Positions 30,803-43,580 of a stretch of 44,285 nucleotides of DNA are shown here, piece by piece. Under the pieces are notes generated by a model. The model was not told the origin of the DNA. It did no database searches and saw only the letters and a program-made list of their open reading frames with translations. Location: IMG/VR virus record IMGVR_UViG_3300031256_000003, positions 1 through 44,285 of that record; one strand, written 5' to 3'. Made by a program: the position numbers and the translations under genes. Position 1 is the stretch's first letter; the number at the start of each line of letters is the position of its first letter. This DNA is from a virus.

Positions 30803-31000
30803 TTACCAAGCCCGATAATCCATAAGGTCCTCGCTTTCATCGTTTGCGCCATTCCGCCCATGAAAATTGCATGTAGAAATGTCGGACGTACGCATTCCTA
30901 GCCACGGACCTTGCGTATTTTGACAAAGAGAATGTCTATCTCCCGGCTTCTGATCTGCCCAAAAACGGCAGGTCTTACAGGTGTCGGTTTCGCTCATCAT
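30803..31000 (-). CDS. Small cysteine-rich (zinc-binding-like) protein
   Basis: 65 residues from the ATG at 31000 (GAGGTAAC upstream); the longer frame to 31141 overlaps the previous gene. The pattern CKTCRFW, then LC and STCNFHGR suggests a four-cysteine/histidine metal site of the 'CxxC.fw....C........C..F' type seen in many phage microproteins. Role unknown. Confidence 0.66.
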   Translation of the reverse strand: MMSETDTCKTCRFWADQKPGDRHSLCQNTQGPWLGMRTSDISTCNFHGRNGANDESEDLMDYRAW

Positions 31001-31286
31001 TGTTACCTCTTGGCTGGTCATGCTCATTAGGCATTCCCTCCTGCAGATGTACCACGGCGACGTGCTTGATCCAGGCGTTGATTTCTTCTTGGCAGCATGA
31101 CTGCGCCTCCTCAAGTGTCGCGAAAGCGCCAATTTCTCCATCGCCCCAGAAAGCCGCGAAACGGGAATCTAGGTCGATATCCGCTTCCTCCGTGATGGTG
31201 AATCCATATTCCGAATCGGTCCAGAAAGATTCTTCGATCTTCTCCCATTTGATCGGCTTAGCGGTTATTGTCACTTCAGTAGTCAT
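30975..31286 (-). CDS. Hypothetical protein
   Basis: 103 residues from the ATG at 31286 (weak GGGAAC). It contains KWEKIEESFWTDSEYGFTITEEADIDLDSRFAAFWGDGEIGAFATLEEAQSCCQEEINAWI. The sense is 'instrument-like' short phage protein with strand, strand and helix, where 'w....s....G.y.i.......f.a.w.....ig.f.tleeAka.cq......' recurs in phage genomes. Function unknown. It overlaps both neighbours slightly. Confidence 0.62.
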   Translation of the reverse strand: MTTEVTITAKPIKWEKIEESFWTDSEYGFTITEEADIDLDSRFAAFWGDGEIGAFATLEEAQSCCQEEINAWIKHVAVVHLQEGMPNEHDQPRGNNDERNRHL

Positions 31287-31473
31287 TGGTTGTTCCCATC
31301 CGTCTGACAATTTCCTCTGCCTCGATCCACGTGCATTTGCACTCAGCCATGGTGCGTTCGATCTCCCGCACGTAGGCATTGCGCGCGAGCTCCTCCCGCT
31401 CGCCCTCGAGATCGTCTAGCTCTGGCTCGAGTCGCATGGCTTCTGGAGATCCCATTGGGCAGAATCTAATCAT
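31276..31473 (-). CDS. Small helical hypothetical protein
   Basis: 65 residues; the ATG overlaps the upstream TGA. It holds two charged helices (MRLEPELDDLEGEREELARNAYVREIERTMAECKCTWIEAEEIVRRM). Coupled to the coiled-coil protein before it. No function is proposed. Confidence 0.55.
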   Translation of the reverse strand: MIRFCPMGSPEAMRLEPELDDLEGEREELARNAYVREIERTMAECKCTWIEAEEIVRRMGTTNDY

Positions 31474-32411
31474 GAGGCCGCCCGAAATAGCGAGATCGGG
31501 AAATAGTAATCCGCTTGTGCTGCCAGCTTACAGATCCGCAACCAATCGCTGCGAGTAAGTCGCATGATATTCGTTCCGTATGTGAGAACGATCGCATCTG
31601 GTGTTACGGTCGCGTGGATGCCGCTGCCAAGGTCGGCCCTAAGGAGGGTGCCCTGGTCCGTATATTTGGTACGCGTATTGTCGGCCGCTGCCGTCGGGTA
31701 TCCGACCTGGGATTCCCGTGGGGGCAGATTCTCGTCCGGTGGCATCTCGGTCTGGCCCTGCGGGTCCGGTGCTGCCCGCGCTTCACCGGTGCGGCTTTGC
31801 TCTTCCCTGCGAGCCGCCTCTGCACGCTCCTGCATGCGGATCCTGGCGGCCTCGCGGCGCTCCCGCTCCGTCTCCTCGGCGATCCGAGCCTGCTTCAATG
31901 CTTGGTGTCCGCGTGCGATAGCGGCATCCAAGGCGAGCTGCGCACGGTCTTTAAACTCATGGAACGAGTCGTCGATAACGAACGCCTCAAGCTCCCTCAG
32001 CTCCGCATCGATCTCGTCCGCTGAGCCGGTGAGGGGTTCCAGGATCGAGCTGATGCGCCGCTCGATCGCTGCTTTGCGCGCCTTCTCGTCTGACTCCCAT
32101 TCGTCGAGAGGCCGGCGGACCTTCGCCTTGAGGTCGTCGAGCCGCTCGCGCATCGCCTTGCGCACGCGGTCCACCGATGCCACGCGATCGCGCAGTTCGG
32201 ATACCAGATCCTTTCCGAGGCCGTCCAGGTAGGTCTTAGAACGCGCGACCCTATGCGCCCTGGACGCTATCTCCTTGCGGCCTTTCTCTGTGCTTGTGTC
32301 AGGCACCAGCGAGATGGCGTCCTGCTCGACTTTTTCCAGGATCTTGTCCAAGCCGCCTGGTGCGAAGAGGGTCGGGAGGTCCGGGTTTTGGATTGGTATC
32401 AGGTCAGCCAT
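31470..32411 (-). CDS. Coiled-coil protein of the recombination region
   Basis: 313 residues. The N-terminal half (LDKILEKVEQDAISLVPDTSTEKGRKEIASRAHRVARSKTYLDGLGKDL) matches a pattern I know from phage proteins encoded beside RecT-type annealing genes. A long helical, Arg/Glu-rich middle (about 165-215) leads to a Pro-rich linker, and a separate C-terminal domain (ATVTPDAIVLTYGTNIMRLTRSDWLRICKLAAQADYYF) follows. It probably acts with the recombination proteins, perhaps as a DNA-end or scaffold factor; this is inference. Confidence 0.7.
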   Translation of the reverse strand: MADLIPIQNPDLPTLFAPGGLDKILEKVEQDAISLVPDTSTEKGRKEIASRAHRVARSKTYLDGLGKDLVSELRDRVASVDRVRKAMRERLDDLKAKVRRPLDEWESDEKARKAAIERRISSILEPLTGSADEIDAELRELEAFVIDDSFHEFKDRAQLALDAAIARGHQALKQARIAEETERERREAARIRMQERAEAARREEQSRTGEARAAPDPQGQTEMPPDENLPPRESQVGYPTAAADNTRTKYTDQGTLLRADLGSGIHATVTPDAIVLTYGTNIMRLTRSDWLRICKLAAQADYYFPISLFRAAS

Positions 32412-32657
32412 TTAGATCAACTCCAGATCGTCGAGGTGAAATGAGAGCGTTACGGCCGGGAGGCTGCAACAACCGTCGATTGCGGCCCGGCCATCCATCA
32501 GAACGAGCACACTGGTGAGAGTGAGATCCGCGGAAATAATCGTACCGGCCTCGCCGTGGTATCGGCTCTGGATCGATCCTGGAGGATATCGAAGCTGGCG
32601 GACCTTCACCCTTCGATCGATGAGCGTCTCTAACGGAAGCATTTTCGCGGTTGTCAT
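32412..32657 (-). CDS. Small beta-rich hypothetical protein
   Basis: 81 residues from the ATG at 32657 (GAGGG seven bases upstream). MTTAKMLPLETLIDRRVKVRQLRYPPG is followed by GEAGTIISADLTLTSVLVLMDGRAAI, which looks like a small SH3-like barrel as in 34348-34644. It ends one base before the coiled-coil gene. Function unknown. Confidence 0.58.
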   Translation of the reverse strand: MTTAKMLPLETLIDRRVKVRQLRYPPGSIQSRYHGEAGTIISADLTLTSVLVLMDGRAAIDGCCSLPAVTLSFHLDDLELI

Positions 32658-32673
32658 AGAAAAACCCTCGCAG

Positions 32674-32886
32674 TCAACCGGCCCAATCCTCAAACACTGG
32701 ACATCCGCTCTCATATTCGAATGTCAGACCTGATCGCTCGCGTTTGCTGGCAATCGAGACAGCTTCGGCACTGACATGCCATCGGCAATAGCCGAGCTTC
32801 ACTGACCGAAGCAGCTGTTCGCTATTGGATTGGTCCCAGTGACGGCAGTTGCCGCAGAAATTTCTCCCGCCATCTTTCTTTTCCAT
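32674..32886 (-). CDS. Small zinc-finger-like protein
   Basis: 70 residues from the ATG at 32886. The motif NFCGNCRHWD near the N-terminus, then YCRWHV and a late SGCPVFEDW, gives the 'C..C..W......C......C..f' pattern of several small proteins in this genome. Possibly zinc-binding; role unknown. Confidence 0.62.
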   Translation of the reverse strand: MEKKDGGRNFCGNCRHWDQSNSEQLLRSVKLGYCRWHVSAEAVSIASKRERSGLTFEYESGCPVFEDWAG

Positions 32887-32921
32887 TCCGGTTTCCCCGT
32901 ATGCATCGTCTGCCGCGCCCT

Positions 32922-32951
32922 GCCGGGCCAAGCCGGGCTGCGCGGCCCGGC
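32922..32951 (-). other. GC-rich hairpin after recT
   Basis: Arms GCCGGGCC (32922-32929) and GGCCCGGC (32944-32951) form an 8-bp stem in the 74-base gap after the annealing-protein stop codon. There is no T-run, so it probably affects mRNA stability rather than terminating. Confidence 0.5.
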
Positions 32952-32960
32952 CATGAGCCG

Positions 32961-34247
32961 TTATGTTCTCAGAACACGTTCGATGTCAGACCGCTCGGCG
33001 TCGGTGAGATTCGACGTGCGCATCAGGTCGCGAACCTCATCACGCGCCTCATCGGTGTCGGCGAACCGCGCTTCCTCCAGCAGGGCCGCGTAGCTGAAGC
33101 CGGAACCACCAGATTCTGTCTGCGGCGGATCTCGCGGCTCGGTCTCTGCGGGCTCTGAATCCGTCTGCCATGGCGCCGTCGATTTCTGCTCGTCCAGGTC
33201 CGCGATGCGGCGCGCCATGTCTGCTTTGGCCTGGCCCTCCAGCCGCTGCAAGAGATCTGGATCAACTCCCCGCTTTTGGCGCCAGGTACCATCAGCGTTC
33301 CATGTGCGGTTAGCGCTATGCACTTCCGGAATCCACGGGATATCGCGTGGATCGACCAGGATGCCGAGTGCATTCGGCTCTGGTCTCGGGCCATCTGGCT
33401 CCGCTCCTTGCGTGGTTGTTGGTTTCCTCTCGTTCTCTTGATCCCGCTCTTGTTCCGACGATTCAGGCGGGTCGGTCGCTTCCTTCGCCCGTCGCTGTTT
33501 AGATTCCGCCATCAGCTTGGCGTCCACTCCTTCGCCAGTGTCCGGTGTGACGTTCACCTCGTAGCGGCCGAAGTCAGCCTCATCCTCGTCCGCGATGACC
33601 TGTGCCAGCTCATCGCTCTGGGGCCAGTATTTTGCGTTGCGCCGAATGACAGTCTTCCATGCCATGGCCTCAAAGTCGGTTACCCATGGCCCAGAGTCTT
33701 TGGCGGGTGAGCGCTGGCGGATCGCCTCGACCTGCTCGACGGTCATGGGTCCGGCGCCGAATGATCGCGTGCCATCCCGGAAGGTCGCCACAGCGTAATA
33801 GGCGAGAGCTTCTCCGCGGCCGCTGAGGGCAGGCTTGTGGATCAGGTTCGGATTTAGCCCAAGCTCCCAGTCCCATTTGTCGTTCTCGCGGATCGTAGCC
33901 GGGAACACATCCAGGATCTCGCCGCTCTGGCGCATCAGGGAAATGATGCCCTGATACATGGGGACGAACTGCGCGTCCATCGTTCCCGTCTTTCTGTTCC
34001 GGAATGGCACCAATGCGCCCATGCGTCCATCGGGCATCAGCCCGCGCTCTGCCGCCTTCATGGTGCCTGCCAAGACGCTGTTCGGAGTGCATTTGGCTAG
34101 CGCCGGGTTGACTTGGAGCTGGGTGAAGAGTGCGCGGGCGAAACGCTCCGGCGAGATATGCTTCGGCAGCGCGAGCTTGATCTGCGCTTGCTGCTTCAAA
34201 ATCAAGTTGCGTAGGTTTGCGACGTTGGTTTTCTGTAAGTCATTCAT
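32961..34247 (-). CDS. recT: RecT-family single-strand annealing protein with C-terminal extension
   Basis: 428 residues. The first about 250 are RecT-like: LPKHISPERFARALFTQLQVNPALAKCTPNSVLAGTMKAAERGLMPDG, then MYQGIISLMRQSGEI and AMAWKTVIRRNAKYWPQSDEL. A charged Pro/Glu linker is followed by a small phage domain (DPRDIPWIPEVHSANRTWNADGTWRQKRGVD) and an acidic tail that could recruit host SSB or partners. With the exonuclease at 35290-36204 it forms a RecE/RecT-type pair for end resection and annealing in replication and recombination. GAGGA lies six bases before the ATG, and a conserved leader hairpin precedes it. Confidence 0.93.
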   Translation of the reverse strand: MNDLQKTNVANLRNLILKQQAQIKLALPKHISPERFARALFTQLQVNPALAKCTPNSVLAGTMKAAERGLMPDGRMGALVPFRNRKTGTMDAQFVPMYQGIISLMRQSGEILDVFPATIRENDKWDWELGLNPNLIHKPALSGRGEALAYYAVATFRDGTRSFGAGPMTVEQVEAIRQRSPAKDSGPWVTDFEAMAWKTVIRRNAKYWPQSDELAQVIADEDEADFGRYEVNVTPDTGEGVDAKLMAESKQRRAKEATDPPESSEQERDQENERKPTTTQGAEPDGPRPEPNALGILVDPRDIPWIPEVHSANRTWNADGTWRQKRGVDPDLLQRLEGQAKADMARRIADLDEQKSTAPWQTDSEPAETEPRDPPQTESGGSGFSYAALLEEARFADTDEARDEVRDLMRTSNLTDAERSDIERVLRT

Positions 34248-34270
34248 TTCAGTCCTCTTCTGTTGTTGGG

Positions 34271-34338
34271 TGCCCTAGCTTGCTGCCGCTATGCGATACG
34301 GAGCTCAAGTTGCGATCTTGATCAGCGAGCATCGGGCA
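34271..34338 (-). other. Conserved leader hairpin element, copy 2
   Basis: Arms TGCCCTAGCTTGCTG (34271-34285) and CAGCGAGCATCGGGCA (34323-34338) pair over about 14 bp with a bulge. The element lies in the 100-base leader of recT, about 25 bases before its start, and shares the flank ACCCAACAAC with copy 3. Confidence 0.72.
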
Positions 34339-34347
34339 TGGACTATT

Positions 34348-34644
34348 TCATTTCGCTCTCGCTGTTGGCTTGTCCGCAGGCCCCATCTTACCTTCAGCTA
34401 TTTCACCCTGGATAAAGTTGGGCGGCTCCATAATGCGGTCGTCATCGACTCTTTCTAGGCGAGCTATATCAAACCAGTAGTTCGGCTTTCGCTCTCCATC
34501 ATACTTCAATCCCGTATTTAGAGAGCCTTGAATGCAGCCATAAAGGTCGAACGAGACCGTATCAACGACCCCTTCTGCCCCTGTGATTTTGTCTCTCGCC
34601 CGGAAGCCAAGAAGCTCAAGATGCTTAAGTACGCAAATATCCAT
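34348..34644 (-). CDS. Small barrel-like conserved phage protein
   Basis: 98 residues. LLGFRARDKITGAEGVVDTVSFDLYGCIQGSLNTGLKYDG then NYWFDIARLERV is a widespread phage pattern ('lG...rDkvTGf.G.v.svsfDlyGciQ......WfD..Rle.') of unknown function, probably an SH3/KOW-like barrel. Its leader carries hairpin copy 3. Confidence 0.75.
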   Translation of the reverse strand: MDICVLKHLELLGFRARDKITGAEGVVDTVSFDLYGCIQGSLNTGLKYDGERKPNYWFDIARLERVDDDRIMEPPNFIQGEIAEGKMGPADKPTARAK

Positions 34645-34663
34645 AATTCTCTCCGTTGTTGGG

Positions 34664-34773
34664 TGCCCGATGCTCGCTAACCAAGCTTCGATTTATCCGA
34701 ACGCTCGGCGGCTGCATTACCGCTCACGAGCCTCGCATTCGGTCCACTACGCGATGCCAACAAGCATCGGGCA
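34664..34773 (-). other. Conserved leader hairpin element, copy 3
   Basis: Arms TGCCCGATGCTCG (34664-34676) and CAAGCATCGGGCA (34761-34773) enclose an 84-base loop. This copy has the perfect TGCCCGATGC / GCATCGGGCA pairing without the bulge. It sits in the 143-base leader of the gene at 34348-34644. Confidence 0.7.
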
Positions 34774-34787
34774 TTAATTCGCGCGTC

Positions 34788-35222
34788 CTAGCGCAGATCG
34801 AGAGTGTATCCCCACGTCCCGGGGAGGTTGATCACGCTCAGGGTCAGCGGGTTGAGCGGGTCAGTCGGATTGATTGATCCCTGCTCTACGATGAAATAGC
34901 CGCCGCCGTGTTTTTGGGTTGCCAGGGTGGTGCCGTCCGGATTGACCTGCTGCCGTAGCAAGCATTGTTGGAGGTGCGCCGTCTCGCCGCGCTCGTTTGC
35001 GAGGGTAGCGTCCACACACAGTTCTGTCCCGTCGCTCCAGACCCGCCCGTCAGCAGACACGGCCGGATAGCTGAGCCCGTCTGATGCGACGAAGCTGCCG
35101 CCGATCACCGTTGTTCCGAACGCAGTTCCCCAGATACTCGGAACTGGTTGGGTTGTCGCTAGGGCGCTTGCGGTGAACAATGCGAGCGCGGCTCCGATTG
35201 TGAATAGACTCGTCTTTCTCAT
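34788..35222 (-). CDS. Exported protein of unknown function
   Basis: 144 residues with a classical signal peptide: MRK, hydrophobic core SLFTIGAALALFTASALA, likely cleavage after ALA at about residue 22. The mature part is beta-rich with two cysteines (LCVDA and QCLLR) that could form a disulfide. It would act in the periplasm or be secreted, an odd property for a gene among recombination functions; cell-surface exclusion of other phages is one possibility. GGAGAAAAGAG precedes the ATG. Confidence 0.66.
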   Translation of the reverse strand: MRKTSLFTIGAALALFTASALATTQPVPSIWGTAFGTTVIGGSFVASDGLSYPAVSADGRVWSDGTELCVDATLANERGETAHLQQCLLRQQVNPDGTTLATQKHGGGYFIVEQGSINPTDPLNPLTLSVINLPGTWGYTLDLR

Positions 35223-35289
35223 CTCTTTTCTCCTAAATTAGCGACCTGCGTCAATCCTCGGCTCGGTCGCTTCTGCCGGGGACTCTTTC

Positions 35290-36204
35290 TCACAGCGCCC
35301 ATCGGGGCAGGCTGATGGACTCGATTTCATCCGGATATCCAGGCCAGTATCCAGTGGCGTATGCCTCGGCAAATCGCTGGAATACCCGCTCGCACAAATG
35401 CCAGCCGCGGGCGATCGCCTCTGGATCAAACCCCATCACGCGCACGCCAAACGGACGCTCAGACTCGACGACGATATGGCGGAATGCTCGTGGTGACCCA
35501 TTGGCCTTGGCCGCCCACTCATAGAGAGCCGCCTGGATGTGGTACTGGTAGGTCCCGCACTTGCGCGCATAGGCGTCATAGCCGGCCGAATCGGTGGTCT
35601 TGATATCGCCGGTCAGATCCATCTTGTTCGACCAGATATCAGCCCTGGTCTTGACTGGGCAGCATGTCTCTTCGTGCCGCGCGAGAACCGTCACTTCGGG
35701 CGAGAAGTCTTGGAGCATGATCGAGGCGATTGGATGGCTGAGAACCGCGTCACGCATCGCCATCGCTTGTGCATGGGTGTCATGATCTATTATGTACCGC
35801 CCGGAATCCTCGACCATTTCCATAAGCGCCGTCATCTGCTCATCTAGGAACTTGCCGAGCGCTTTCCCATCGAAATGGGGCACGTCGAGCTCCAGCGCCT
35901 CGGCCAGGCTACGGACATAGAGGTCTTTCCCGGCGTTCGAGTTTTTCGCTGCGCCACTGGTCAGCACGATGTAGCGCTTGGCCTCTGGCTCGAGGAGCAT
36001 CTCATGGAGGAGCGTCCCGCGTCGCTTCGCCTTGCTCTCCTTGTCAATCTTCTCGCGGACATGCAGCATGGATTCCGCTAGCGCGATCTTGATTGCCGAT
36101 GAGCTGGCCGCCGGGATTTCAAGATAGGTCTGGAATGGGACCCCCAGCATGATGCTCGGGAAGGCGAAGGCATCCGTCTGCTCGATGAGGGCTGCTTCGC
36201 TCAT
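35290..36204 (-). CDS. RecE/exonuclease VIII-like PD-(D/E)XK nuclease
   Basis: 304 residues from the ATG at 36204, whose ATGA overlaps the upstream stop; the longer frame to 36399 is an overlap artefact. It carries the RecB-type nuclease motifs in order: RRGTLLHEML with H67, E170, D189 in RADIW, D200-x-K202 in TGDIKTTD, and QAALY (about 224-228). This is the exonuclease partner of the RecT-like protein and would resect double-stranded DNA ends to give a 3' overhang for annealing. Confidence 0.88.
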   Translation of the reverse strand: MSEAALIEQTDAFAFPSIMLGVPFQTYLEIPAASSSAIKIALAESMLHVREKIDKESKAKRRGTLLHEMLLEPEAKRYIVLTSGAAKNSNAGKDLYVRSLAEALELDVPHFDGKALGKFLDEQMTALMEMVEDSGRYIIDHDTHAQAMAMRDAVLSHPIASIMLQDFSPEVTVLARHEETCCPVKTRADIWSNKMDLTGDIKTTDSAGYDAYARKCGTYQYHIQAALYEWAAKANGSPRAFRHIVVESERPFGVRVMGFDPEAIARGWHLCERVFQRFAEAYATGYWPGYPDEIESISLPRWAL

Positions 36205-36449
36205 AGCTGCGGGCCCTCCAGACGATCCAGCAGCCTGCTGGCCACGTAGCGCCGCGCGGCAACGAGATCCGGATCTCCGCGCTGGTCTGGCTCGGCGAGG
36301 GCCTTCAGATAGCCAAGTCGGTCCTTTTCCTGTAGCGCGCGTCGCGCTATGAGCTCGGCCACAGTCGGGACCTCGTGGCGATCCATATCGATCTCGCAAA
36401 GAAACCGCCAGACCGGATCGAGCTTGGTCTTAGGTTGTTCAATATCCAT
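36201..36449 (-). CDS. Small hypothetical protein coupled to the exonuclease
   Basis: 82 residues from the ATG at 36449 with AGAGGA upstream. A longer frame to 36542 reads into the repeat array and is rejected. Sequence: PVWRFLCEIDMDRHEVPTVAELIARRALQEKDRLGYLKALAEPD, mostly helical. It is the first gene after array 1 in the direction of transcription and is translationally coupled to the exonuclease. No family recognised. Confidence 0.64.
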   Translation of the reverse strand: MDIEQPKTKLDPVWRFLCEIDMDRHEVPTVAELIARRALQEKDRLGYLKALAEPDQRGDPDLVAARRYVASRLLDRLEGPQL

Positions 36450-36486
36450 GGTCACGGTCCTCTGTTTGCTGTCGTTTTGTCTTGCG

Positions 36487-36771
36487 TGGCTAATCGCACG
36501 GCTCGGTCGGTTCTCACCTACCCTACGGCTTATCGCACCCAATCAACGGTTCTCACTTGACCCTTGGCTCATCGCACAGCCTGAGCGGTTCTCACTTTAT
36601 GAACGGCTCATCGCATAGCGCTCTCGGTTCTCACCCCTGGTTCGTCTCATCGCACATCTGGGACGGTTCTCACCCGTCGATCGGCTCATCGCACTTCAGT
36701 CACGGTTCTCATAGTTACAACGGCTCATCGCACCCGCGTTACGGTTCTCATGCCTCATGCGGCTCGTCACT
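36487..36771 (-). repeat. TIGR-like array 1: seven 39-nt units with two conserved motifs and two variable spacers
   Basis: Read on the minus strand, two motifs alternate. The 12-nt motif TGCGATGAGCCG (usually preceded by G) occurs eight times, at plus coordinates 36487, 36526, 36565, 36604, 36643, 36682, 36721 and 36760. GTGAGAACCG occurs seven times, at 36508, 36547, 36586, 36625, 36664, 36703 and 36742. The period is exactly 39 nt. Variable segments are always 8 nt on one side and 9 nt on the other, and all seven pairs differ. The end copies are degenerate, and the copy at 36760 overlaps the stop codon of the Nop-like gene. No terminator is seen in the 37 bases beyond the distal end. Confidence 0.93.
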
Positions 36772-37840
36772 ATGCGGCCTTCTCGTCCTCGAACAGGACG
36801 TATCTATAGGGCGGCGTGATGTAATGCGCATGTCCCTTGATCGCAGTCGCAAACGGATTCGGCGGCTTTTGCCCATTCTCGACCTCAAACCATAACTCAT
36901 GCAGATGGCTCAAGAAGAGCTTCACCGTCGCCCGCCTGGCCATCGCATCAATGTGCCCATCTGGAAGCTTGCCCATCGCCAATACGTCCTTTTGCGCGTG
37001 GTTTGGGAACTTCTGTAGCTTTGCCTCCGCCAGCTTGGCCCGGCCCCCGGTGTCGTTTCGTACCACCTCCGCAGCCTTGCGCTGCCGGTAGAACTTCGCG
37101 TAGAACGCATCTTCGCGACCACCTAGCTTCACCATCTGGTCGCCGATCTTCCAGCACATCGTCTTCAGTGGCCGATTGAACGGTATTCTCGCCAAGCTTT
37201 TGATCGCGCTGGTCTTTGTCAGCGCCTTGGTTTCACCGGTCTTGAAATCGGTTGTTGCGTCGCGTAGCACGGTCTCCGGGTCACGTCCGAGAATGATGCT
37301 GAGCTGGCGCACCCGGAATTCCACGTCTCCAGTGCGCTCCTTCCAAAGCTCCTTCAGGGTGTCTGTCGACTCCCACCGCTGGCTCGGATCGAGGCCGGCA
37401 AAGCGCCACCAATGGCCGACCGTTGGAGGAACGGGTCGATAACCCAGATGCGCAAGTATGCCGGCGGACAAGACCGGGCCGATCCCAGGTACGGCCGAGA
37501 ACCACGGCCACATGGGATGAGTTTGCGCGAACGCCTGGAGGAAGCCAGCGGAGTTGGCCTCCATGGTCTCCGCCTGGCGAAGCATGTAGTCGACATATTC
37601 CGTGCTGGCTCCGCTATCGCTTCCGCGTTGCACAGCGCCGCCCTGATTGGCGAGCCGCTTGCGCATTTCCTGCATGGTGTAGTAGAGGTCCACAAGCACA
37701 CGTGCCTCGGCTGCAGTACATTTGCCGGGAGGTCCTTCGAGTGATGCTCCGGCCGCGCGCGCCTGTTCGCCAGCTCGGATTGCCGCGATCGCGTCCTTTG
37801 AAAGCTTGATGATTGGCGTTAAGCTAATAGGGTCTTTCAT
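36770..37840 (-). CDS. Tas-like protein: Nop / IS110 C-terminal (Tnp_20)-like RNA-guided DNA-binding protein
   Basis: 356 residues from the ATG at 37840; the frame opens earlier but that part overlaps another gene. Two helices (about 44-66 and 80-108) lead into the core FSAVPGIGPVLSAGILAHLGY...HWWRFAGLDPSQRW (about 114-156). This is the helix-hairpin-helix 'PGiG...A..l.a..g......F....Gl.P' pattern shared by IS110/IS116/IS902 transposase C-termini and Nop domains. The C-terminal half is helical and basic, ending with HIDAMARRATVKLFLSHLHELW. No DEDD catalytic domain, HNH or RuvC motif is present, so it looks like a stand-alone binding protein. It lies between two TIGR-like arrays, which is the decisive context. 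The ribosome-binding site is poor. Confidence 0.85.
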   Translation of the reverse strand: MKDPISLTPIIKLSKDAIAAIRAGEQARAAGASLEGPPGKCTAAEARVLVDLYYTMQEMRKRLANQGGAVQRGSDSGASTEYVDYMLRQAETMEANSAGFLQAFAQTHPMWPWFSAVPGIGPVLSAGILAHLGYRPVPPTVGHWWRFAGLDPSQRWESTDTLKELWKERTGDVEFRVRQLSIILGRDPETVLRDATTDFKTGETKALTKTSAIKSLARIPFNRPLKTMCWKIGDQMVKLGGREDAFYAKFYRQRKAAEVVRNDTGGRAKLAEAKLQKFPNHAQKDVLAMGKLPDGHIDAMARRATVKLFLSHLHELWFEVENGQKPPNPFATAIKGHAHYITPPYRYVLFEDEKAA

Positions 37841-37850
37841 GGTTCTGCTT

Positions 37851-37870
37851 CGCCCCGGGCTACCGGGGCG
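37851..37870 (-). other. Hairpin before the Tas-like gene
   Basis: Perfect 8-bp stem CGCCCCGG / CCGGGGCG around a 4-base loop, ten bases upstream of the Tas-like ATG on the minus strand. It may restrict ribosome access or separate the transcript segments. Read on the plus strand it is followed by CCTCTTTT, a weak terminator-like tail with no rightward gene to serve. Confidence 0.6.
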
Positions 37871-37890
37871 CCTCTTTTCGTGTTTCCAGT

Positions 37891-38175
37891 TCAGCCAACT
37901 GCCTTGGCCGGGATCTCTTCCTGCTGCACTGCTTCCAGTTGCGGCGATCCTATCGGCATCATAATGGCCCGGTTCTTGGCTATGTCCGGGGCCTGGATCA
38001 TGAGTTTCTTGAAGCCCACGTTCATCGTGGCCCAAGCCCGCGCCTCCTTTAGGAAGCCCTGCACCTGCCGGTTTTTCTTCTCAATGTCCAAATCATCGCG
38101 CTCATCGATCTGCTCGACCTTATCGATGCAATAATCGACAACGCCATCCACACTGCGCTCAATCTTCTTGCTCAT
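37891..38175 (-). CDS. Small helical protein between array 2 and the Tas-like gene
   Basis: 94 residues, with AGAGGA nine bases upstream of the ATG. It starts MSKKIERSVDGVVDYCIDKVEQIDERDDLDIEKKNRQVQGFLKEARAWATMN, is charged and helical, then IAKNRAIMMPIGSPQLEA. I do not recognise it. Because it lies between array 2 and the Tas-like gene in one transcript, it may be an accessory factor of that system or an ordinary early gene. Confidence 0.66.
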   Translation of the reverse strand: MSKKIERSVDGVVDYCIDKVEQIDERDDLDIEKKNRQVQGFLKEARAWATMNVGFKKLMIQAPDIAKNRAIMMPIGSPQLEAVQQEEIPAKAVG

Positions 38176-38195
38176 CTTGTCTTCCTCTTAGTTAT

Positions 38196-38210
38196 GCCGG
38201 CCCTGCCGGC
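38196..38210 (-). other. Small hairpin at the distal end of array 2
   Basis: GCCGGC / GCCGGC around CCT forms a 6-bp stem immediately after the last degenerate repeat of array 2 in the direction of transcription and just before the ribosome-binding site of the next gene. It could mark the end of the array RNA. Confidence 0.5.
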
Positions 38211-38216
38211 TGTTAA

Positions 38217-38735
38217 TGAAAATTCGCACGATTGACGCGATTCTCACCTAGTTCAAGGCTCGTCGCATGATCCAATTTGTTCTCACAGTAGCTTCGGCTC
38301 ATCGCACCCCGAGGTCGGTTCTCACAACCCTCACGGCTCGTCGCATTCGCCTGGCGGTTCTCACCGGCTGAACGGCTCATCGCGCACCCACTACGGCTCT
38401 CGCTGGAAGTTCGGCTAGTCTCATTCCGTGCTCGGTTCTCGCGCCACTGATGGATCATCGCACCTTTCGAACAGTTCTCTCTCGCCATTCGGCTCATCGC
38501 ACTTGCGCTTCGGTTCTCACCACTGGGTCGGCTCATCGCACCCACGTTACGGTTCTCACGGCAGCTTCGGCTCATCGCACCATGCGAACGGTTCTCACTC
38601 TCCAGACGGCTCATCGCACCGACTTTACGATTCCCACTATTTTTACGGCTCATCGCATACCGTGCTCGGTTCTCATGCCGCTGATGGCTCATCGCATCGC
38701 GGGGACGGTTCTCACGGGCTTTTCGGCTCATCTAC
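38217..38735 (-). repeat. TIGR-like array 2: thirteen 39-nt units with two conserved motifs and two variable spacers
   Basis: This array has the same two motifs, period and spacer lengths as array 1. On the minus strand TGCGATGAGCCG-type copies start (plus coordinates) at 38256, 38295 and so on every 39 nt to 38724, with a badly degenerate one at 38217. GTGAGAACCG-type copies lie at 38238 to 38706. Copies from 38490 to 38715 are nearly perfect, whereas those from 38217 to 38481 carry several substitutions, so the array decays toward its 3' end as transcribed. The last copy (38724-38735) overlaps the stop of the upstream microprotein. Because 39 is 13 codons, an apparent 172-codon reading frame with a 13-residue repeat runs through it; I regard that as a by-product. 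Confidence 0.93.
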
Positions 38736-38844
38736 CAAAAAAAATAGCCAAATTGATTGCCACGATCGCACCCAGGACTGCGCCCACGATAAGGAGGGCG
38801 AACCAAGCGGGGGGCATGGGCTCACGGAGCGGTTCTCTGCTCAT
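38728..38844 (-). CDS. 38-residue membrane microprotein
   Basis: The ATG at 38844 overlaps the stop of the preceding gene (ATGA), and its own TGA lies inside the first repeat of array 2. After MSREPLREPMPP comes one membrane helix, AWFALLIVGAVLGAIVAINLAIFFG. A run of eight T lies near its 3' end. It is the second gene of the leftward operon. Function unknown. Confidence 0.62.
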   Translation of the reverse strand: MSREPLREPMPPAWFALLIVGAVLGAIVAINLAIFFGR

Positions 38845-39032
38845 GACCGTCCCATCCTGATGCCTTCGTAGCTGCCATCCGCGAAAGCGATCAGGCGCCG
38901 TCCGATCTGGTCCATGTCGTCATGGATCTGCAGGAGCTCAGTGTTCCTGGGGTAGTGGAGCATAACTACGACCTCGTCATCTCGTCGGCCGGGAGTCGGC
39001 TCCGGTGGGGTCTGTGGGACCTCGGTTCGCAT
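38841..39032 (-). CDS. First gene of the leftward operon, small hypothetical protein
   Basis: 63 residues from the ATG at 39032 with GAGAGGA eight bases upstream. Longer starts overlap the promoter and are rejected. It has a Pro-rich N-terminus (QTPPEPTPGRR), a strand (DEVVVMLHYP) and NTELLQIHDDMDQIGRRLIAFADG. It sits where lambda places N, but I see no arginine-rich RNA-binding motif that would make it an antiterminator. Confidence 0.62.
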   Translation of the reverse strand: MRTEVPQTPPEPTPGRRDDEVVVMLHYPRNTELLQIHDDMDQIGRRLIAFADGSYEGIRMGRS

Positions 39033-39078
39033 CTGGGTCTTCCTCTCGTCTGGTGCTTGCGTCCTCGTGAGGCGCATT

Positions 39079-39107
39079 GTAAACCCCGCTTTTACCTCCG
39101 TGTCAAC
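39079..39107 (-). promoter_or_regulatory. Probable early leftward promoter (PL-like)
   Basis: On the minus strand a consensus TTGACA (39107-39102) is followed after 17 bases by TTTACA (39084-39079), or after 19 by the better TACAAT (39082-39077). It would start the leftward operon about 40 bases before its first gene. The -10 choice is uncertain. Confidence 0.6.
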
Positions 39108-39151
39108 AAGAAATTTGCGACGGAGACGTTTTTTGCGCCAGGGACCAAAAT

Positions 39152-39162
39152 AACCTAAGGTT
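39152..39162. promoter_or_regulatory. Palindrome overlapping the rightward -35: candidate operator
   Basis: AACCTAAGGTT is a perfect 5+1+5 palindrome that overlaps the first bases of the PR-like -35. A Cro-type dimer bound here would block the rightward promoter. A single site is visible, not the three of lambda. Confidence 0.45.
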
Positions 39163-39188
39163 GACATGAAATTACAGGGGGGTATATT
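39161..39188 (+). promoter_or_regulatory. Early rightward promoter (PR-like)
   Basis: TTGACA (39161-39166), a 16-base spacer and TATATT (39183-39188). Transcription would start near 39195, about 30 bases before the Cro-like ATG. Diverges from the leftward promoter about 55 bp away. Confidence 0.78.
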
Positions 39189-39224
39189 TGGGCGCAACGG
39201 CGCGAAACTGCCCAGGAGAAAGAG

Positions 39225-39509
39225 ATGTCAAAAGCCGCACCACGCGGAAGGCGCAACCCGATCGTGCGGGCCTGCCAGGTGCTGGACTGCACCCAGGCGG
39301 AGCTGGCCCGCCAGCTGCGGTGCACCCGGGCGGCCGTGAGCAAGGCGAAGGGGCTCGGTGAAGTGTCCTGGTCGATGGCGCTGGACCTCGAGCGCATCAC
39401 GGGCGGGAAGATCACCCGCTATGAAGCCTGTCCCAAGACCTACGGTCCTGCGCCGGCCGCGCCTCCGCCGCCCGAGGACGAGAAGCAGGTATCCGCGAAC
39501 GCCGCCTGA
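39225..39509 (+). CDS. Cro/YdaS-like helix-turn-helix regulator
   Basis: 94 residues, with AGGAGA five bases upstream. The HTH is at about residues 19-45 (LDCTQAELARQLRCTRAAVSKAKGLGEVSW), followed by MALDLERITGGKITRYEACP, the typical YdaS/Cro continuation 'A..iE..TgGkvtr...rP'. The Pro-rich tail is variable. It would repress its own promoter and perhaps the leftward one. No CI-type repressor with a dimerisation/cleavage domain exists opposite it. Confidence 0.85.
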   Translation: MSKAAPRGRRNPIVRACQVLDCTQAELARQLRCTRAAVSKAKGLGEVSWSMALDLERITGGKITRYEACPKTYGPAPAAPPPPEDEKQVSANAA

Positions 39510-39678
39510 TCCAGGTGGCGCCAGGATGCCTCGCATGGTTCTGAGAGGCCGCCGCACGCGATCGGGGAGAGTTCCCTCCTTCCTCACCCGAACGCTCGGT
39601 GACCTCTCTCCCCAAACGCCGCCCGCCAGTCCGGCGGCTTCAGTAGGGCTGGACCTTCTGGTGGGTCCTCCTGAGATT
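39510..39678 (+). other. Gene-free leader between cro-like gene and terminator
   Basis: About 170 bases with no convincing gene; short frames here are shadows. It contains a GC hairpin (GCCGCC...GGCGGC, about 39617-39637). By analogy to lambda it could hold nut-like antitermination signals or a small RNA, but no boxA/boxB can be named. Confidence 0.4.
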
Positions 39679-39711
39679 GCCCGCGCACTGAGCCTGCGCG
39701 GGCTTTTTTTT
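39679..39711 (+). terminator. Strong intrinsic terminator after the cro-like gene (tR1-like)
   Basis: Perfect 9-bp stem GCCCGCGCA / TGCGCGGGC (39679-39687 and 39695-39703), a 7-base loop, then eight T (39704-39711). It would stop transcription from the rightward promoter before the replication genes, so passage must be controlled. Confidence 0.93.
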
Positions 39712-39754
39712 GGGAGAGACGGGGGGAGGCTGAGGGAAGGCTTAGAGGTATCAC

Positions 39755-39961
39755 ATGCACATTGAGAAGCGAGGATACTCATCCAACCCGTGGAGGCTCA
39801 TCGACAGCCGTGGACGAGAGGTTGACATACCACGGGCATTCGATCACCCGGACCTCGGGGCAACGTCGATTCTGTATCCCGTATGCGGTGAGACGCGAAA
39901 ACAATGCGAGGCCGAGGCATTGGCGCTCTTAGAACGCCTGTTGAGTACCGGTGCTTCATGA
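39755..39961 (+). CDS. Small hypothetical protein
   Basis: 68 residues. KRGYSSNPWRLIDSRGREVDIPRAFDHPDLG looks like a short beta unit, followed by a helix CEAEALALLERLL. The sense resembles small phage proteins with 'npWrLvd..G.ev.....dhp....'. The preceding AGAGGT serves as ribosome-binding site. The stop overlaps the next ATG. Confidence 0.62.
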   Translation: MHIEKRGYSSNPWRLIDSRGREVDIPRAFDHPDLGATSILYPVCGETRKQCEAEALALLERLLSTGAS

Positions 39962-40218
39962 CCATCATCTTCGCAACATTCGTCTCCGTCTTCGGACGCG
40001 CGATTCAGCAGCTCAACGTCGTCGGCGGTCACTATCTGGCTGCCGCCCTGACGCCGCTCCTTATCGCCGCCGGTGACGTGTCGCTCGTCCTGCTGGTGGT
40101 AGACCGCGGATGGTCTTCGATCCCGTTCTCCGGGCTCGGCGGGGCAATCGGTGCGGTCTCGGCGATGTGGCTTCATGGCCGGGTACGCGCGCATCTGCGA
40201 GCGCAGGAGAAAACGTAA
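39958..40218 (+). CDS. Small membrane protein
   Basis: 86 residues from the ATG overlapping the upstream stop (ATGA). Two or three hydrophobic segments: HYLAAALTPLLIAAGDVSLVLLVVDRGW and GLGGAIGAVSAMWLHGRV. Similar short membrane proteins occur before replication genes in phages. Function unknown. Confidence 0.62.
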   Translation: MTIIFATFVSVFGRAIQQLNVVGGHYLAAALTPLLIAAGDVSLVLLVVDRGWSSIPFSGLGGAIGAVSAMWLHGRVRAHLRAQEKT

Positions 40219-40227
40219 AGTAACTCC

Positions 40228-40398
40228 ATGCCAGTCTTCCAATTCAAACTCTCCGATTCGCCAGGCGGCTGGCTGAACATGATCTCACCAGACGACGATA
40301 TCGACGTGGCGCGCGAGGACCTGGAGAAGGTGTTCGGATCCGGGCGGGTGCTCGATGTCCGCAGCGCGGCGGAGGACCGCCGAGATGACGACGACTAG
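40228..40398 (+). CDS. 56-residue hypothetical protein
   Basis: ATG at 40228, TAG at 40396. MPVFQFKLSDSPGGWLNMISPDDDIDVAREDLEKVFGSGRVLDV, with an acidic, Asp-rich end. It overlaps the start of the O-like gene by 14 bases in another frame, so the two are coupled. Function unknown. Confidence 0.55.
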   Translation: MPVFQFKLSDSPGGWLNMISPDDDIDVAREDLEKVFGSGRVLDVRSAAEDRRDDDD

Positions 40399-41368
40399 GC
40401 GGCTTCGCGTGGTCGATGCATCCGTCGCTCCCGAGCCGCCATATCCGGCCGATACCGAGGCTAACGGGTACAAACCGATGGTCGATTGGCAGCGGATCAA
40501 GTCGAGCAAGAGCTGGCGGCTGTGCCCGCCGGAGCTTCGCAACGCCCTGTTACGGCTTTGGCTTGAGAGCTGGAACGAGGTACCCGCTGGCTCCTGGGAA
40601 GACGACGACGATCTGATCGCTGCCGCTATCGACGTAACGCCCGTAACGTTACGCAAACACCGGGTAACGTTACTGAGTGGTTGGGTACGTCATTCTGATG
40701 GTCGCCTGTACCACCAATTCATCACCGAACAAGTGTTCGCCATGCTCGAAAAGCGTAGGGACACCAAGGACGCTAACAGGGAAAGACAGGCTAGGTGGCG
40801 CGAGAGGAAGCGGCAAGAACGTGAGAAAGAACTTGAAGAAAACGTAACGCGATGTCCCGTTACGGAGACGTTACGTAACGCACAGGATAGGATAGGAAGG
40901 GATAGGATAGGACTTAAGAAGGGAGCTAAAGCTCCCAGTATTGCTAACGCAATCGTGGATTTTGATCAGACGAAATCGGACGAATCTTCCGAAAACCTAG
41001 ACGGCAGTAAGCCAGCCGACGAGACACCCGTTCGCAGCGTGTTCAGCTATTGGCAGCAGGTCGCTGGACATCCCACTGCCAAACTCGATGCCAAACGGAA
41101 GCGCGCAATCTCAGGTCGCCTGAGGGACGGCTTCTCCGCAGAGGATCTCAAGCGGGCCGTCGATGGCTGCAAGGCGTCCGATTGGCACCAGGGAAAGAAC
41201 AATGGCCGCAAGGTCTACGACGACATCGAGCTGATCTGCCGTAACGCGAGCAACGTGGAGCGCTTTCAGCAATACCTGGTTGCAGGGGAGGCGGAGGCTA
41301 GCCAGCTCGATGCCTGGCTGAAGGAAGACAAGCCCATCGATGGGGAATGCGAACGTGTCGAAACATGA
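40385..41368 (+). CDS. Replication initiator / O-like protein
   Basis: 327 residues from the ATG at 40385 (GGAGGA upstream). The N-terminal domain (MVDWQRIKSSKSWRLCPPELRNALLRLWLESWNEVP; LIAAAIDVTPVTLRKHRVTLLSGWV) is a winged-helix like DUF1376/phage O domains. A very basic linker (RERQARWRERKRQERE) follows. The C-terminus (VFSYWQQVAGHPTAKLDAKRKRAISGRLRDGFSAEDLKRAVDGCKASDW ... NVERFQQYL) matches the phage-replisome organiser C-terminal domain that recruits the helicase loader. The middle of the gene contains the candidate origin, as in lambda O. Confidence 0.85.
   Translation: MTTTRRLRVVDASVAPEPPYPADTEANGYKPMVDWQRIKSSKSWRLCPPELRNALLRLWLESWNEVPAGSWEDDDDLIAAAIDVTPVTLRKHRVTLLSGWVRHSDGRLYHQFITEQVFAMLEKRRDTKDANRERQARWRERKRQEREKELEENVTRCPVTETLRNAQDRIGRDRIGLKKGAKAPSIANAIVDFDQTKSDESSENLDGSKPADETPVRSVFSYWQQVAGHPTAKLDAKRKRAISGRLRDGFSAEDLKRAVDGCKASDWHQGKNNGRKVYDDIELICRNASNVERFQQYLVAGEAEASQLDAWLKEDKPIDGECERVET
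40634..40914 (+). repeat. Iteron cluster: candidate replication origin inside the O-like gene
   Basis: GTAACG/CGTTAC repeats cluster in two groups. The first has GTAACG at 40634 and palindromes GTAACGTTAC at 40643 and 40664. The second has GTAACG at 40844, CGTTAC at 40859, and CGTTAC-GTAACG at 40869-40880. They are followed by direct repeats of GGATA (five between 40884 and 40914). A GGGAGCT/AGCTCCC dyad lies just downstream (40921-40936). This is the layout of lambdoid origins: iterons bound by O, then an easily melted segment. Confidence 0.78.
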
Positions 41369-42137
41369 TTTTTCAGCACTGATGGACGAACTGGGTGAGG
41401 TGTATGAGCGCCAGGTATCGGCCACGCTCAAACGGCTGTACTGGGACGATCTTGGCAGCGTACCGGTAGAGGCGCTCCAGATGGCTGCTCGGTTGCATCG
41501 CCGTGATCCTGACCGAGGGCGGTTCTTCCCGAAGCCTGCAGATTTCGTCGAGAAACTGGAGCAGCTGTCCGGAGACAAGGCGATCACTGCGGATGAAGCA
41601 TGGGCGGTCGCGTTGGCGTCGTTCGATGAGCGCAACACGATCTGCACCACGGACGAGATCATGCAGGCCGCGGCAGTCGCCTCTCCCATCTACGCCAGTG
41701 GGGACAAGGTCGGCGCACGCTTAGCGTTTCGTGCTGCCTTCGAGCGTGCATTCGCTGCCAGCCATGCCGCCGGCAAATGCAGCAGGTGGCGGCTATCGCT
41801 TGGTTGGGATGCAGATGCCAGACAGCACGCCGTTTCCGAGGCATTGTGCCTTGGCCGTATCACGGAGGCAGACGCAGCCCCATATCTTCCGCCGCCAGCG
41901 CCTTCTTCGGAGGTTCTGCAGCTTACCGGGAACGTTTTGAAGCATCCGCGCAGTGAAGAGTCGATAGCGCGGAAATATCTCCGTGAGTTCAAAGCACGTA
42001 TTGCTGAGCGAAATATTGCGAAGTCCGAGGAAGAGATGCGGCACGAGGAGTTGATCGCCAAGCGGGAAGAGTTCGAGTCTAGGCGGGCTAAGGCGCTTGA
42101 AGCGCTCGAGCGGATGGAGGCTGGCAAGGGGAAATGA
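41340..42137 (+). CDS. Helicase-loader-like (P-like / G39P-like) protein
   Basis: 265 residues from the ATG at 41340; a GTG at 41355 with GGGGA eight bases upstream is an attractive alternative. The N-terminal 70 residues (FSALMDELGEVYERQVSATLKRLYWDDLGSVPVEALQMAARLHRRDPDRGRFFPKPADFVEKLE) match the helical 'y...l......f..av......p..G.fFPkpadi...' domain of phage helicase loaders. The C-terminus is a charged coiled coil. It directly follows the O-like gene, as P follows O in lambda. It would bring the host replicative helicase to the origin. Confidence 0.75.
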   Translation: MGNANVSKHDFSALMDELGEVYERQVSATLKRLYWDDLGSVPVEALQMAARLHRRDPDRGRFFPKPADFVEKLEQLSGDKAITADEAWAVALASFDERNTICTTDEIMQAAAVASPIYASGDKVGARLAFRAAFERAFAASHAAGKCSRWRLSLGWDADARQHAVSEALCLGRITEADAAPYLPPPAPSSEVLQLTGNVLKHPRSEESIARKYLREFKARIAERNIAKSEEEMRHEELIAKREEFESRRAKALEALERMEAGKGK

Positions 42138-42385
42138 ACAACGAGAGAAAAAATTGGAACCCGAGCTTACTGGTAAAGCAACTCATCAATGACTGGTGGC
42201 CAGACGGAGGAGAGGACATCGCGAAAAAAGCTTGGAGCAATCCGGATGGGTTCCTGTGTACCATGGCAGCACTACAGGCAGATTTGATCCGGCATTATTT
42301 GTCATCGATGGACAATGAGACCGGAATGAGAGCAATCAACACGCTGCGATGGCTCGATCGCAGAGCAAGCGGGCTCGATGGATGA
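42134..42385 (+). CDS. Small hypothetical protein
   Basis: 83 residues; the ATG overlaps the loader stop (ATGA). NWNPSLLVKQLINDWWPDGGEDIAKKAWSNPDGFLCTMAALQADLI is helical and Trp-rich. Slightly AT-richer than its neighbour. Not recognised. Confidence 0.6.
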   Translation: MNNERKNWNPSLLVKQLINDWWPDGGEDIAKKAWSNPDGFLCTMAALQADLIRHYLSSMDNETGMRAINTLRWLDRRASGLDG

Positions 42386-42397
42386 TTGGAGGTGCAA

Positions 42398-42613
42398 ATG
42401 TCAGAGTGCGATGCTAGATGCGATGACTGTGGAAGATTTATGAAGATCACAGATTCAGGCGCTTCCACGGCGTATCAATATGATTTCGTCAAGATGGAAT
42501 GTTCATATGAGCATTGGCGATGCCCTTCTTGCACTGCGAGGATTGGGCCAATTCGCACCAATGCTAGGCCGAACAATGGCGACATGACGCGTTACGAGAC
42601 TCATGTACCATAA
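42398..42613 (+). CDS. Zinc-ribbon-like small protein
   Basis: 71 residues from the ATG at 42398, with GGAGGT only four bases upstream; a TTG at 42386 is less likely. Four cysteines in two pairs (CDARCDDCGRFM and WRCPSCTARIG) form a likely zinc ribbon. One of four Cys-rich small genes in a row. Confidence 0.64.
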   Translation: MSECDARCDDCGRFMKITDSGASTAYQYDFVKMECSYEHWRCPSCTARIGPIRTNARPNNGDMTRYETHVP

Positions 42614-42637
42614 ACCTATTGACAGAAACATTTGAGA

Positions 42638-42751
42638 ATGGATGAACCGATGGACCCATTATTCACGGATAATGATGCGAGAGTGCTGATGAAGGCCGTG
42701 GCTGTCGTTGCGGTATTTGCGGTTGTGCTTGGCATTGTTCTGCATTTTTGA
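42638..42751 (+). CDS. 37-residue membrane microprotein
   Basis: ATG at 42638, TGA at 42749. A polar, acidic start (MDEPMDPLFTDNDARVLM) precedes one membrane helix, KAVAVVAVFAVVLGIVLHF. Size and layout resemble other membrane microproteins of this genome (15357, 38728). Confidence 0.55.
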   Translation: MDEPMDPLFTDNDARVLMKAVAVVAVFAVVLGIVLHF

Positions 42752-42770
42752 AGCGCAGAGCGTCAAAACG

Positions 42771-42971
42771 ATGAATACAAGCAAATACATTTCATCCAAT
42801 CCAAGAATCAATGGCGGTCGGCCGGTGGTGGATGGGACCGGCATATCGACAGGTTCGATTTCCGTTCGATTCGCGGCCGGGGAATCCGTTGACCAGTTGA
42901 TCGAGGACTATGAGCTATCACGCCAGCAAATCGAGGCGGCCATACGATGGGAGCTAATCGGAGAGAAATGA
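42771..42971 (+). CDS. DUF433-like (antitoxin-type) protein without a toxin partner
   Basis: 66 residues from the ATG at 42771; the longer frame to 42708 overlaps the microprotein. ISSNPRINGGRPVVDGTGISTGSISVRFAAGESVDQLIEDYELSRQQIEAAIRW is the DUF433 pattern: 'P.v..GrPvv.GT.i....v.....G.s...l...y..s...i..a'. DUF433 proteins usually pair with DUF5615 PIN-like toxins, but the next gene is a YkgJ-like protein, not a PIN nuclease. It might neutralise a host toxin or act as a regulator. Confidence 0.78.
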   Translation: MNTSKYISSNPRINGGRPVVDGTGISTGSISVRFAAGESVDQLIEDYELSRQQIEAAIRWELIGEK

Positions 42972-43345
42972 TGAGCCGATCCAGTAAGATTTCCCGCCAC
43001 AATACCGAGAAGGCTCAGTCGCTCGACGCGCTCTATCGCGAGATCCCTGCATTCGAATGCGTCGATGGATGCACAGCGTGTTGTGGCCCGGTGCCATTTT
43101 CGGAAATCGAGGCAGAGCGAGTTGGCCTTGAGCAAATTGAAGGCAGCACCGAGTTGACCTGTCCGTTCGTTGAAGACGGAGGATGTTCGGTCTATGAGCA
43201 TCGTCCGTTTATCTGCCGCCTCTTTGGGACTGCGCCGCAAGTGCCGGCGCTTCATTGTCCTAAAGGCGGAACCTGCAAAAAGCCGATCTCTGAGAAACGC
43301 GCAGGGGCGCTGACCAATCGATACCTCAAGCTCAATAGGCGATGA
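42968..43345 (+). CDS. YkgJ-type metal-binding protein (CxxCxxxxxxxxxxxxCxC-like family)
   Basis: 125 residues; the ATG overlaps the DUF433 stop. FECVDGCTACCGPVPFSEIEAERVGL, then CPFVEDGGCSVYEHRPFICRLFG is the cysteine arrangement of the YkgJ (PF03692-like) zinc or iron-cluster family. Enzymatic role is unknown in general. Such genes occur in many phages' early regions. Confidence 0.82.
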   Translation: MMSRSSKISRHNTEKAQSLDALYREIPAFECVDGCTACCGPVPFSEIEAERVGLEQIEGSTELTCPFVEDGGCSVYEHRPFICRLFGTAPQVPALHCPKGGTCKKPISEKRAGALTNRYLKLNRR

Positions 43346-43349
43346 CTCA

Positions 43350-43556: not shown

Positions 43557-43580
43557 CGACAGACAAGGGGCTTCTGCAAA

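What the first reader, a model, noticed from the sequence alone, without database searches (positions are those of the whole stretch)
36487..36771. Array 1: a second, separate array downstream of the Tas-like gene
Seven units use the same motifs and spacing but have an entirely different spacer set. The final motif copy overlaps the stop codon of the Tas-like gene, so gene and array are fused end to end. Two arrays around one effector suggest either duplication followed by spacer divergence or two functional cassettes.
Basis: partly seen in the sequence, partly recalled or inferred. Interest (0 to 1): 0.8.

Follow-up and report, generated by a model that had tools for sequence, protein, structure and literature searches.

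The report
Guide-RNA array after phage tas gene
A phage carries two arrays of short paired guide sequences around a gene for an RNA-guided DNA-binding protein; the array after the gene is the family's usual one, so this is a new member of the known TIGR-Tas kind, with one little-noticed detail: in many relatives the gene ends right at, or inside, the first repeat of the array.

Summary
On the minus strand, 36768-36487 is a 5'-truncated edge repeat plus seven 39-nt units, with the motifs of the 13-unit array 2 and no shared unit. It starts one base after the stop codon of a gene that passes NCBI's TIGR-Tas model and folds like the Nop part of TasH and TasR without their nuclease domains. So this is a TIGR-TasA system in a phage, next to RecE/RecT-like recombination genes.

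The framing changes. 'Array 1' is not the unusual second array. Among 48 Tas clusters, 38 have a clear downstream array, 11 an upstream one and 9 both. Arrays 'upstream and/or downstream' are already published. What I did not find in the main text of the founding paper: box C of the first truncated repeat sits 0-1 nt after the tas stop in 17 of 48 clusters, against 50 of 531 other genes.

Most likely: one transcript carries tas and array 1; 39-nt guides from both arrays load a nuclease-less Tas dimer that binds DNA by pairing one spacer with each strand. The target is unknown. Spacer pairs fitted related Tas-less phages about twice as often as re-paired controls (p 0.003), but a further pre-stated test did not repeat this.

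The parts
36487..36768 (-). Array 1: truncated edge repeat + 7 TIGR units of 39 nt (9-nt spacer A, 9-nt loop repeat TGAGAACCG, 9-nt spacer B, 12-nt edge repeat TGCGATGAGCCG)
36760..36768 (-). First, 5'-truncated edge repeat GACGAGCCG of array 1, one base after the tas stop codon
36770..37840 (-). tas gene (TasA type, about 356 aa; start codon uncertain, a longer TTG-start frame to 38035 is open)
   Evidence: NCBIfam NF052498 155.5 bits, cut-off 100; PHROG 4285; model pLDDT 89.4, TasH Z 19.1, TasR Z 17.9
37891..38175 (-). 94-aa ORF between array 2 and tas, no clear family
38217..38732 (-). Array 2: truncated edge GATGAGCCG (38732-38724), 13 units, ends in a 3'-truncated edge TGCGA
36201..36449 (-). 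82-aa ORF directly after array 1, no family
35290..36204 (-). Exonuclease VIII (RecE)-like, PD-(D/E)XK, DUF3799
32961..34247 (-). RecT-like annealing protein
39225..39509 (+). Cro/repressor-like regulator, divergent from the array-tas gene block

Best explanation
Array 1 is a TIGR guide-RNA array belonging to a nuclease-less Tas (TasA-type) gene in a phage early-gene block. Shown: the array anatomy, the Tas family and fold, the absence of a nuclease domain, and the abutment to the stop codon. Inferred from the published family: the array is transcribed with tas as its 3' end, cut inside the edge repeats into guides of about 39 nt (published tigRNAs are 36 nt), and each guide is held by a Tas dimer whose two spacers pair with opposite strands of an adjacent 18-bp DNA site. 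Without a nuclease the complex would bind, unwind and bend DNA rather than cut it, most plausibly to block replication or transcription of a competing element. Array 2, upstream, would feed the same protein with 13 further guides.
For: NCBIfam TIGR_Tas_endo 155.5 bits against a cut-off of 100, with IS110 only 20.1 against 140. A profile of 53 Tas proteins hits the solved TasR at 1.3e-29 and TasH at 1.9e-15. The model matches TasH (Z 19.1, 236 aligned, chain 63-309) and TasR (Z 17.9, 194 aligned, chain 112-322), that is, the part after their nuclease domains. Two alternating repeats, both of form RTG...CC[AG], with 9-nt spacers and truncated first edges, as described in PMC12045711. Same-strand order array 2 - ORF - tas - array 1 - ORF - exonuclease. 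The same tas-plus-array arrangement recurs in relatives.
Against: Unit length is 39 nt, not 36. Array 1 has no terminator after it and its last edge is nearly complete (GTGCGATTAGCCA), unlike the typical published ending. No promoter was recognised on the minus strand. No transcript data. No exact target was found; the excess of target-like sites in related phages was not repeated.
Confidence: 0.88

Rival explanations
1. Array 1 is the decayed or silent remnant of array 2 (duplication followed by divergence), and only array 2 works.
For: Identical repeat consensus in both arrays; one near-duplicate unit pair inside array 2 (b2/b8, 2 of 16 differences) shows that units can be copied.
Against: By the listing array 1 repeats are, if anything, cleaner than those of array 2 (the broken loops b3, b7-b9, b12, b13 are all in array 2). 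Relatives mostly keep the downstream array and lack the upstream one. No unit is shared.
Confidence: 0.08
2. The arrays are a coding repeat: 39 nt is 13 codons and array 2 is open for 172 codons (its translation even hits the Pfam model Lysostaphin_N).
For: Long open frames on both strands; Lysostaphin_N E 3.9e-11, though 43.3 bits is under the 60-bit cut-off.
Against: Conservation lies in two blocks of columns and is the same at all three codon positions (0.69, 0.69, 0.72). Unit lengths of 34-37 nt in relatives and indels in L001 break any frame.
Confidence: 0.02
3. The system regulates the phage itself or its host (RNA-guided repression of own genes) rather than competing elements.
For: TasA has no nuclease; the locus lies in an early-gene block beside a divergent repressor-like gene.
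Against: No site in the window matches a spacer pair in the published contiguous geometry with 3 or fewer of 18 mismatches: 0 true against 0.68 for re-paired spacers. Host targets could not be tested because the host is unknown.
Confidence: 0.25

Closest known systems
TIGR-TasA dual-repeat systems (Faure et al. 2025, PMC12045711)
   Same: Solo Nop-domain protein; two alternating repeats; 9-nt spacers; truncated first edge; tailed-phage home; arrays upstream and/or downstream.
   Different: 39-nt units (12-nt edge) instead of the 36-nt tigRNAs reported; first edge one base after the tas stop codon; no terminator recognised after array 1.
TasH (PDB 9w04, 21kl, 9vzx) and TasR (PDB 9mty)
   Same: Nop and coiled-coil fold over model residues 37-350.
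   Different: No HNH or RuvC domain before it.
IS110/IS621 RNA-guided transposases
   Same: Related RNA-binding fold, Z about 13.
   Different: Far under the NCBIfam cut-off (20.1 of 140 bits); no DEDD domain found; array instead of bridge RNA.
CRISPR arrays
   Same: Interspersed unique spacers.
   Different: Two short alternating repeats of 9 and 12 nt instead of one of 25-36 nt; no cas gene noticed among the ORFs and searches made here.

Membership tests
TIGR-Tas | Nop-domain Tas protein encoded next to the array | tested here: met
   NF052498 155.5 of 100 bits; TasH/TasR fold Z 17.9-19.1
TIGR-Tas | Two distinct alternating 8-12-nt repeats with about 9-nt spacers | tested here: met
   9-nt loop, 12-nt edge, 9-nt spacers in 20 of 20 units
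TIGR-Tas | Shared box D / box C ends of edge and loop repeats | tested here: met
   Consensus of both repeats is R-TG ... CC[AG]; base before TG is a purine in 40 of 40
TIGR-Tas | 5'-truncated first edge, 3'-truncated last edge followed by a terminator (described as typical, not strict) | tested here: inconclusive
   First edge truncated in both arrays; last edge truncated in array 2 only; no clear terminator after array 1, a weak one overlapping the end of array 2
TIGR-Tas | Array processed into tigRNAs bound by Tas | not testable with these tools
   needs RNA sequencing
TIGR-Tas | Spacer A and B pair with opposite strands of adjacent DNA | tested here: inconclusive
   Excess in the published geometry in set R (p 0.003), not repeated in a further pre-stated set (p 0.21)
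TasR or TasH (nuclease Tas) | N-terminal RuvC or HNH domain | tested here: not met
   No nuclease family in Pfam; Nop-type match starts at residues 37-47
IS110 transposase | IS110 family score and catalytic N-terminal domain | tested here: not met
   20.1 bits against 140; Transposase_20 16.4 against 21.3
CRISPR array | One repeat of about 25-36 nt | tested here: not met
   Repeats of 9 and 12 nt

The most novel reading that the evidence does not exclude
The stop codon of tas is built into, or set flush against, the first edge repeat, so that translation termination, guide maturation and Tas abundance are coupled: Tas binding or RNase cutting at the first edge of its own mRNA would trim the message at the stop codon and act as feedback on Tas production.
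Probability: 0.2. Interest if true: 0.6.

Novelty: new member of a known kind. Interest (0 to 1): 0.4.

Why it matters
TIGR-Tas is a recently described RNA-guided DNA-binding family whose natural targets, array growth and guide maturation are called open questions in PMC12045711. This locus adds a TasA system with two complete arrays and 39-nt units. The comparison also gives facts that bear on those questions: the downstream array is the norm and abuts the tas stop codon, and close relatives share whole units, mostly in the same order, with the first unit and the last two often kept and the middle changing.

Tried and rejected
Targets. (1) A degenerate target for the near-duplicate units b2/b8 gave 3 exact hits in viral contigs, in three different proteins: taken as chance. 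(2) First spacer-pair test against 116 loci: no excess once the three circular loci fetched by the pattern itself are set aside. (3) Two hits in the nearest Tas relative, G008: a3 17/18 in an ORF whose site reads IDGHLR (ParB-like by my recall; no Pfam hit), and b10 16/18 in an ORF that I called RecT-like by eye (no Pfam hit). (4) Pre-stated test in phages with a related terminase: weak at first (469 kb: 11 vs 7.3 at 3 or fewer mismatches). After I fetched more of the same records: 24 vs 12.7, p 0.003, and 18 vs 7.7, p 0.003, in the 8+8 form, with 34 vs 23.9, p 0.054, for the array of L001/L028. No excess in the window itself or in unrelated phages, nor in 18 other arrays pooled. (5) Further pre-stated test on 77 portal-related contigs: 12 vs 8.8, p 0.21; L028 23 vs 27.5, p 0.79: not repeated. 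I therefore claim no target.

Other negatives. No tas relative in 50,697 phage records by tblastn. No nucleotide match of 31000-43700 in them. No known RNA family at the arrays in Rfam. PADLOC: none for tas. The first structure model, from 5 sequences, was poor (pLDDT 65) and was replaced by one from 53. The chain parser missed many arrays and was not used for counting arrays.

Full report
What is there. The window is one virus record of 44,285 bases. On its minus strand lie, in order: array 2 (38732-38217), a 94-aa ORF, the tas gene (stop at 36772-36770), array 1 (36768-36487), an 82-aa ORF, an exonuclease VIII-like gene and, further on, a RecT-like gene. Array 1 has a truncated first edge repeat and seven units of 39 nt; array 2 has 13 units. 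Written 5' to 3' on the minus strand, a unit is spacer A (9), TGAGAACCG (loop repeat), spacer B (9), TGCGATGAGCCG (edge repeat). The last spacer base is a purine in 40 of 40 and may belong to the repeat, and the first spacer base is G in 0 of 40. The purine rule also holds in other arrays examined (100 of 102 in L001; 60 of 60 in L014; 260 of 262 in L054). Lag-39 identity of array 1 is 0.679, against at most 0.379 in 5000 shuffles.

Which family. The gene passes NCBI's TIGR_Tas_endo model (155.5 bits, cut-off 100) and fails IS110 (20.1 of 140). PHROG 4285, labelled transposase, also matches. A model from 53 related sequences (pLDDT 89.4, pTM 0.83) matches TasH (Z 19.1, 236 residues) and TasR (Z 17.9, 194 residues), then IS110-type enzymes at about 13, with unrelated helical proteins at 9 or less. 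The aligned part begins at residue 63 of TasH and 112 of TasR, and Pfam shows no nuclease. So it is a TasA-type protein.

What is known. I read PMC12045711 in parts 1-4 of 12 of the main text (introduction to discussion and the start of the methods), the array-finding method section, the figure legends and term searches; supplements were not available. It states that arrays lie upstream and/or downstream of tas and begin with a truncated edge repeat, and it calls targets, array growth and maturation open. 'Stop codon' occurs 0 times in its main text and 0 times in the review PMC12385481, of which I saw passages only. Searches for other papers on tigRNA found nothing further on arrays (listings only). 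That is the extent of my check that the stop-codon detail is not in print.

Relatives. Scans of viral contigs gave 6, 19 and 80 (best 80 of 287) loci. After leaving out repeats of one contig and one fragment (L027), 96 Tas genes including the window fall into 48 clusters. Using lag identity of 0.50 or more within 1500 bases (179 shuffled segments reached at most 0.46), 38 of 48 clusters have a downstream array and 12 an upstream signal. One upstream signal (L079) is a GC-rich simple repeat, leaving 11 upstream and 9 with both. I viewed nine of the upstream arrays and L001's, and all are dual-repeat arrays. Weak cases under the threshold (for example L065/L002, which by eye has both) are not counted. 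L001, the nearest relative at 58% identity, has arrays on both sides, also with 39-nt units, and shares no unit with the window (best 7 of 18 mismatches). The Tas gene was not found in 20 of 20 records, nor in 7 of 7 further ones, held for a related terminase, many of them fragments; tas thus looks like an accessory gene.

Stop codon and first repeat. CC[AG], the box C of the repeats, starts 0-1 nt after the tas stop in 17 of 48 clusters, against 50 of 531 other ORFs of the same loci (one-sided Fisher p 4e-6); within 7 nt it is 26 of 48 against 152 of 531 (p 4e-4). In the window the distance is 7 nt to box C, the truncated edge starting after one base. Examples read TAG|CCA, TAA|CCA, TGA|GCCG and TAA|GCCG, where the stop takes the place of the last bases before box C. 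Ten clusters lack a clear downstream array, and several with one have it further off. The simplest reason is that array 1 is the 3' end of the tas message; coupling of termination to guide maturation is my inference.

Array change over time. Within array 2, units b2 and b8 differ at 2 of 16 bases. In the L054 cluster of 17 contigs, arrays share whole units mostly in the same order; in one sub-group (for example L059, L063, L048, L060, L052) the first unit and the last two are kept while inner units differ, in another (L035, L037-L040) the first two are kept. This is a reading of one listing with a strict parser that misses some units, not a tested model.

Targets. From the published cut sites and the 8-nt 3' overhang I derived that a target reads spacer A followed by the reverse complement of spacer B. 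In 62 pieces (769 kb) of phages with a related terminase, true pairs had 24 distinct sites with 3 or fewer of 18 mismatches, against 12.7 for re-paired spacers (p 0.003); none of the five other geometry or gap forms fell below p 0.05 at that limit. In the 8+8 form the same geometry ranked first of 12 at 2 or fewer mismatches for the window and for L001's array (18 vs 7.7, p 0.003; 34 vs 23.9, p 0.054). By array: array 1 6 vs 2.85 (p 0.086), array 2 12 vs 5.9 (p 0.012). This came after a first weak look on part of the data, and a further test stated beforehand failed (12 vs 8.8, p 0.21, and 23 vs 27.5, p 0.79). I hold the target to be unknown.

Verdict. An authentic TIGR-TasA array; two arrays around one effector is a known, minority arrangement. 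Interest is moderate: the member itself is expected, the flush stop codon and unit turnover are modestly new.

Noticed in passing
window 38213-38731 (-): The translation of array 2 gives a 172-aa open frame that hits Pfam Lysostaphin_N (E 3.9e-11, under its cut-off); automatic annotation could call the array a protein.
   Followed up: yes
window 38646-38684 and 38412-38450 (-): Units b2 and b8 of array 2 are near copies (2 of 16 spacer bases differ) though six units apart.
   Followed up: partly
L054 cluster (L035-L064 in part): Closely related phages share TIGR units mostly in the same order; ends tend to be kept and inner units to differ.
   Followed up: partly
L001:4840-5860 and 7055-8850: The nearest relative carries two long, rather degenerate 39-nt arrays (26 upstream and 25 downstream units parsed), the downstream one starting at the tas stop codon.
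   Followed up: partly
window 39616-39711 (+): Weak match to Rfam anti-hemB (23.9 bits, gathering score 49.5, E 0.027), probably a terminator-like stem.
   Followed up: no
window 37891-38175 (-): 94-aa ORF between array 2 and tas without a clear family; weak hits only.
   Followed up: no
L008 (RZZN01000095.1): A gammaproteobacterial MAG contig holds a terminase 60% identical to the window's, the only hint at the host.
   Followed up: no
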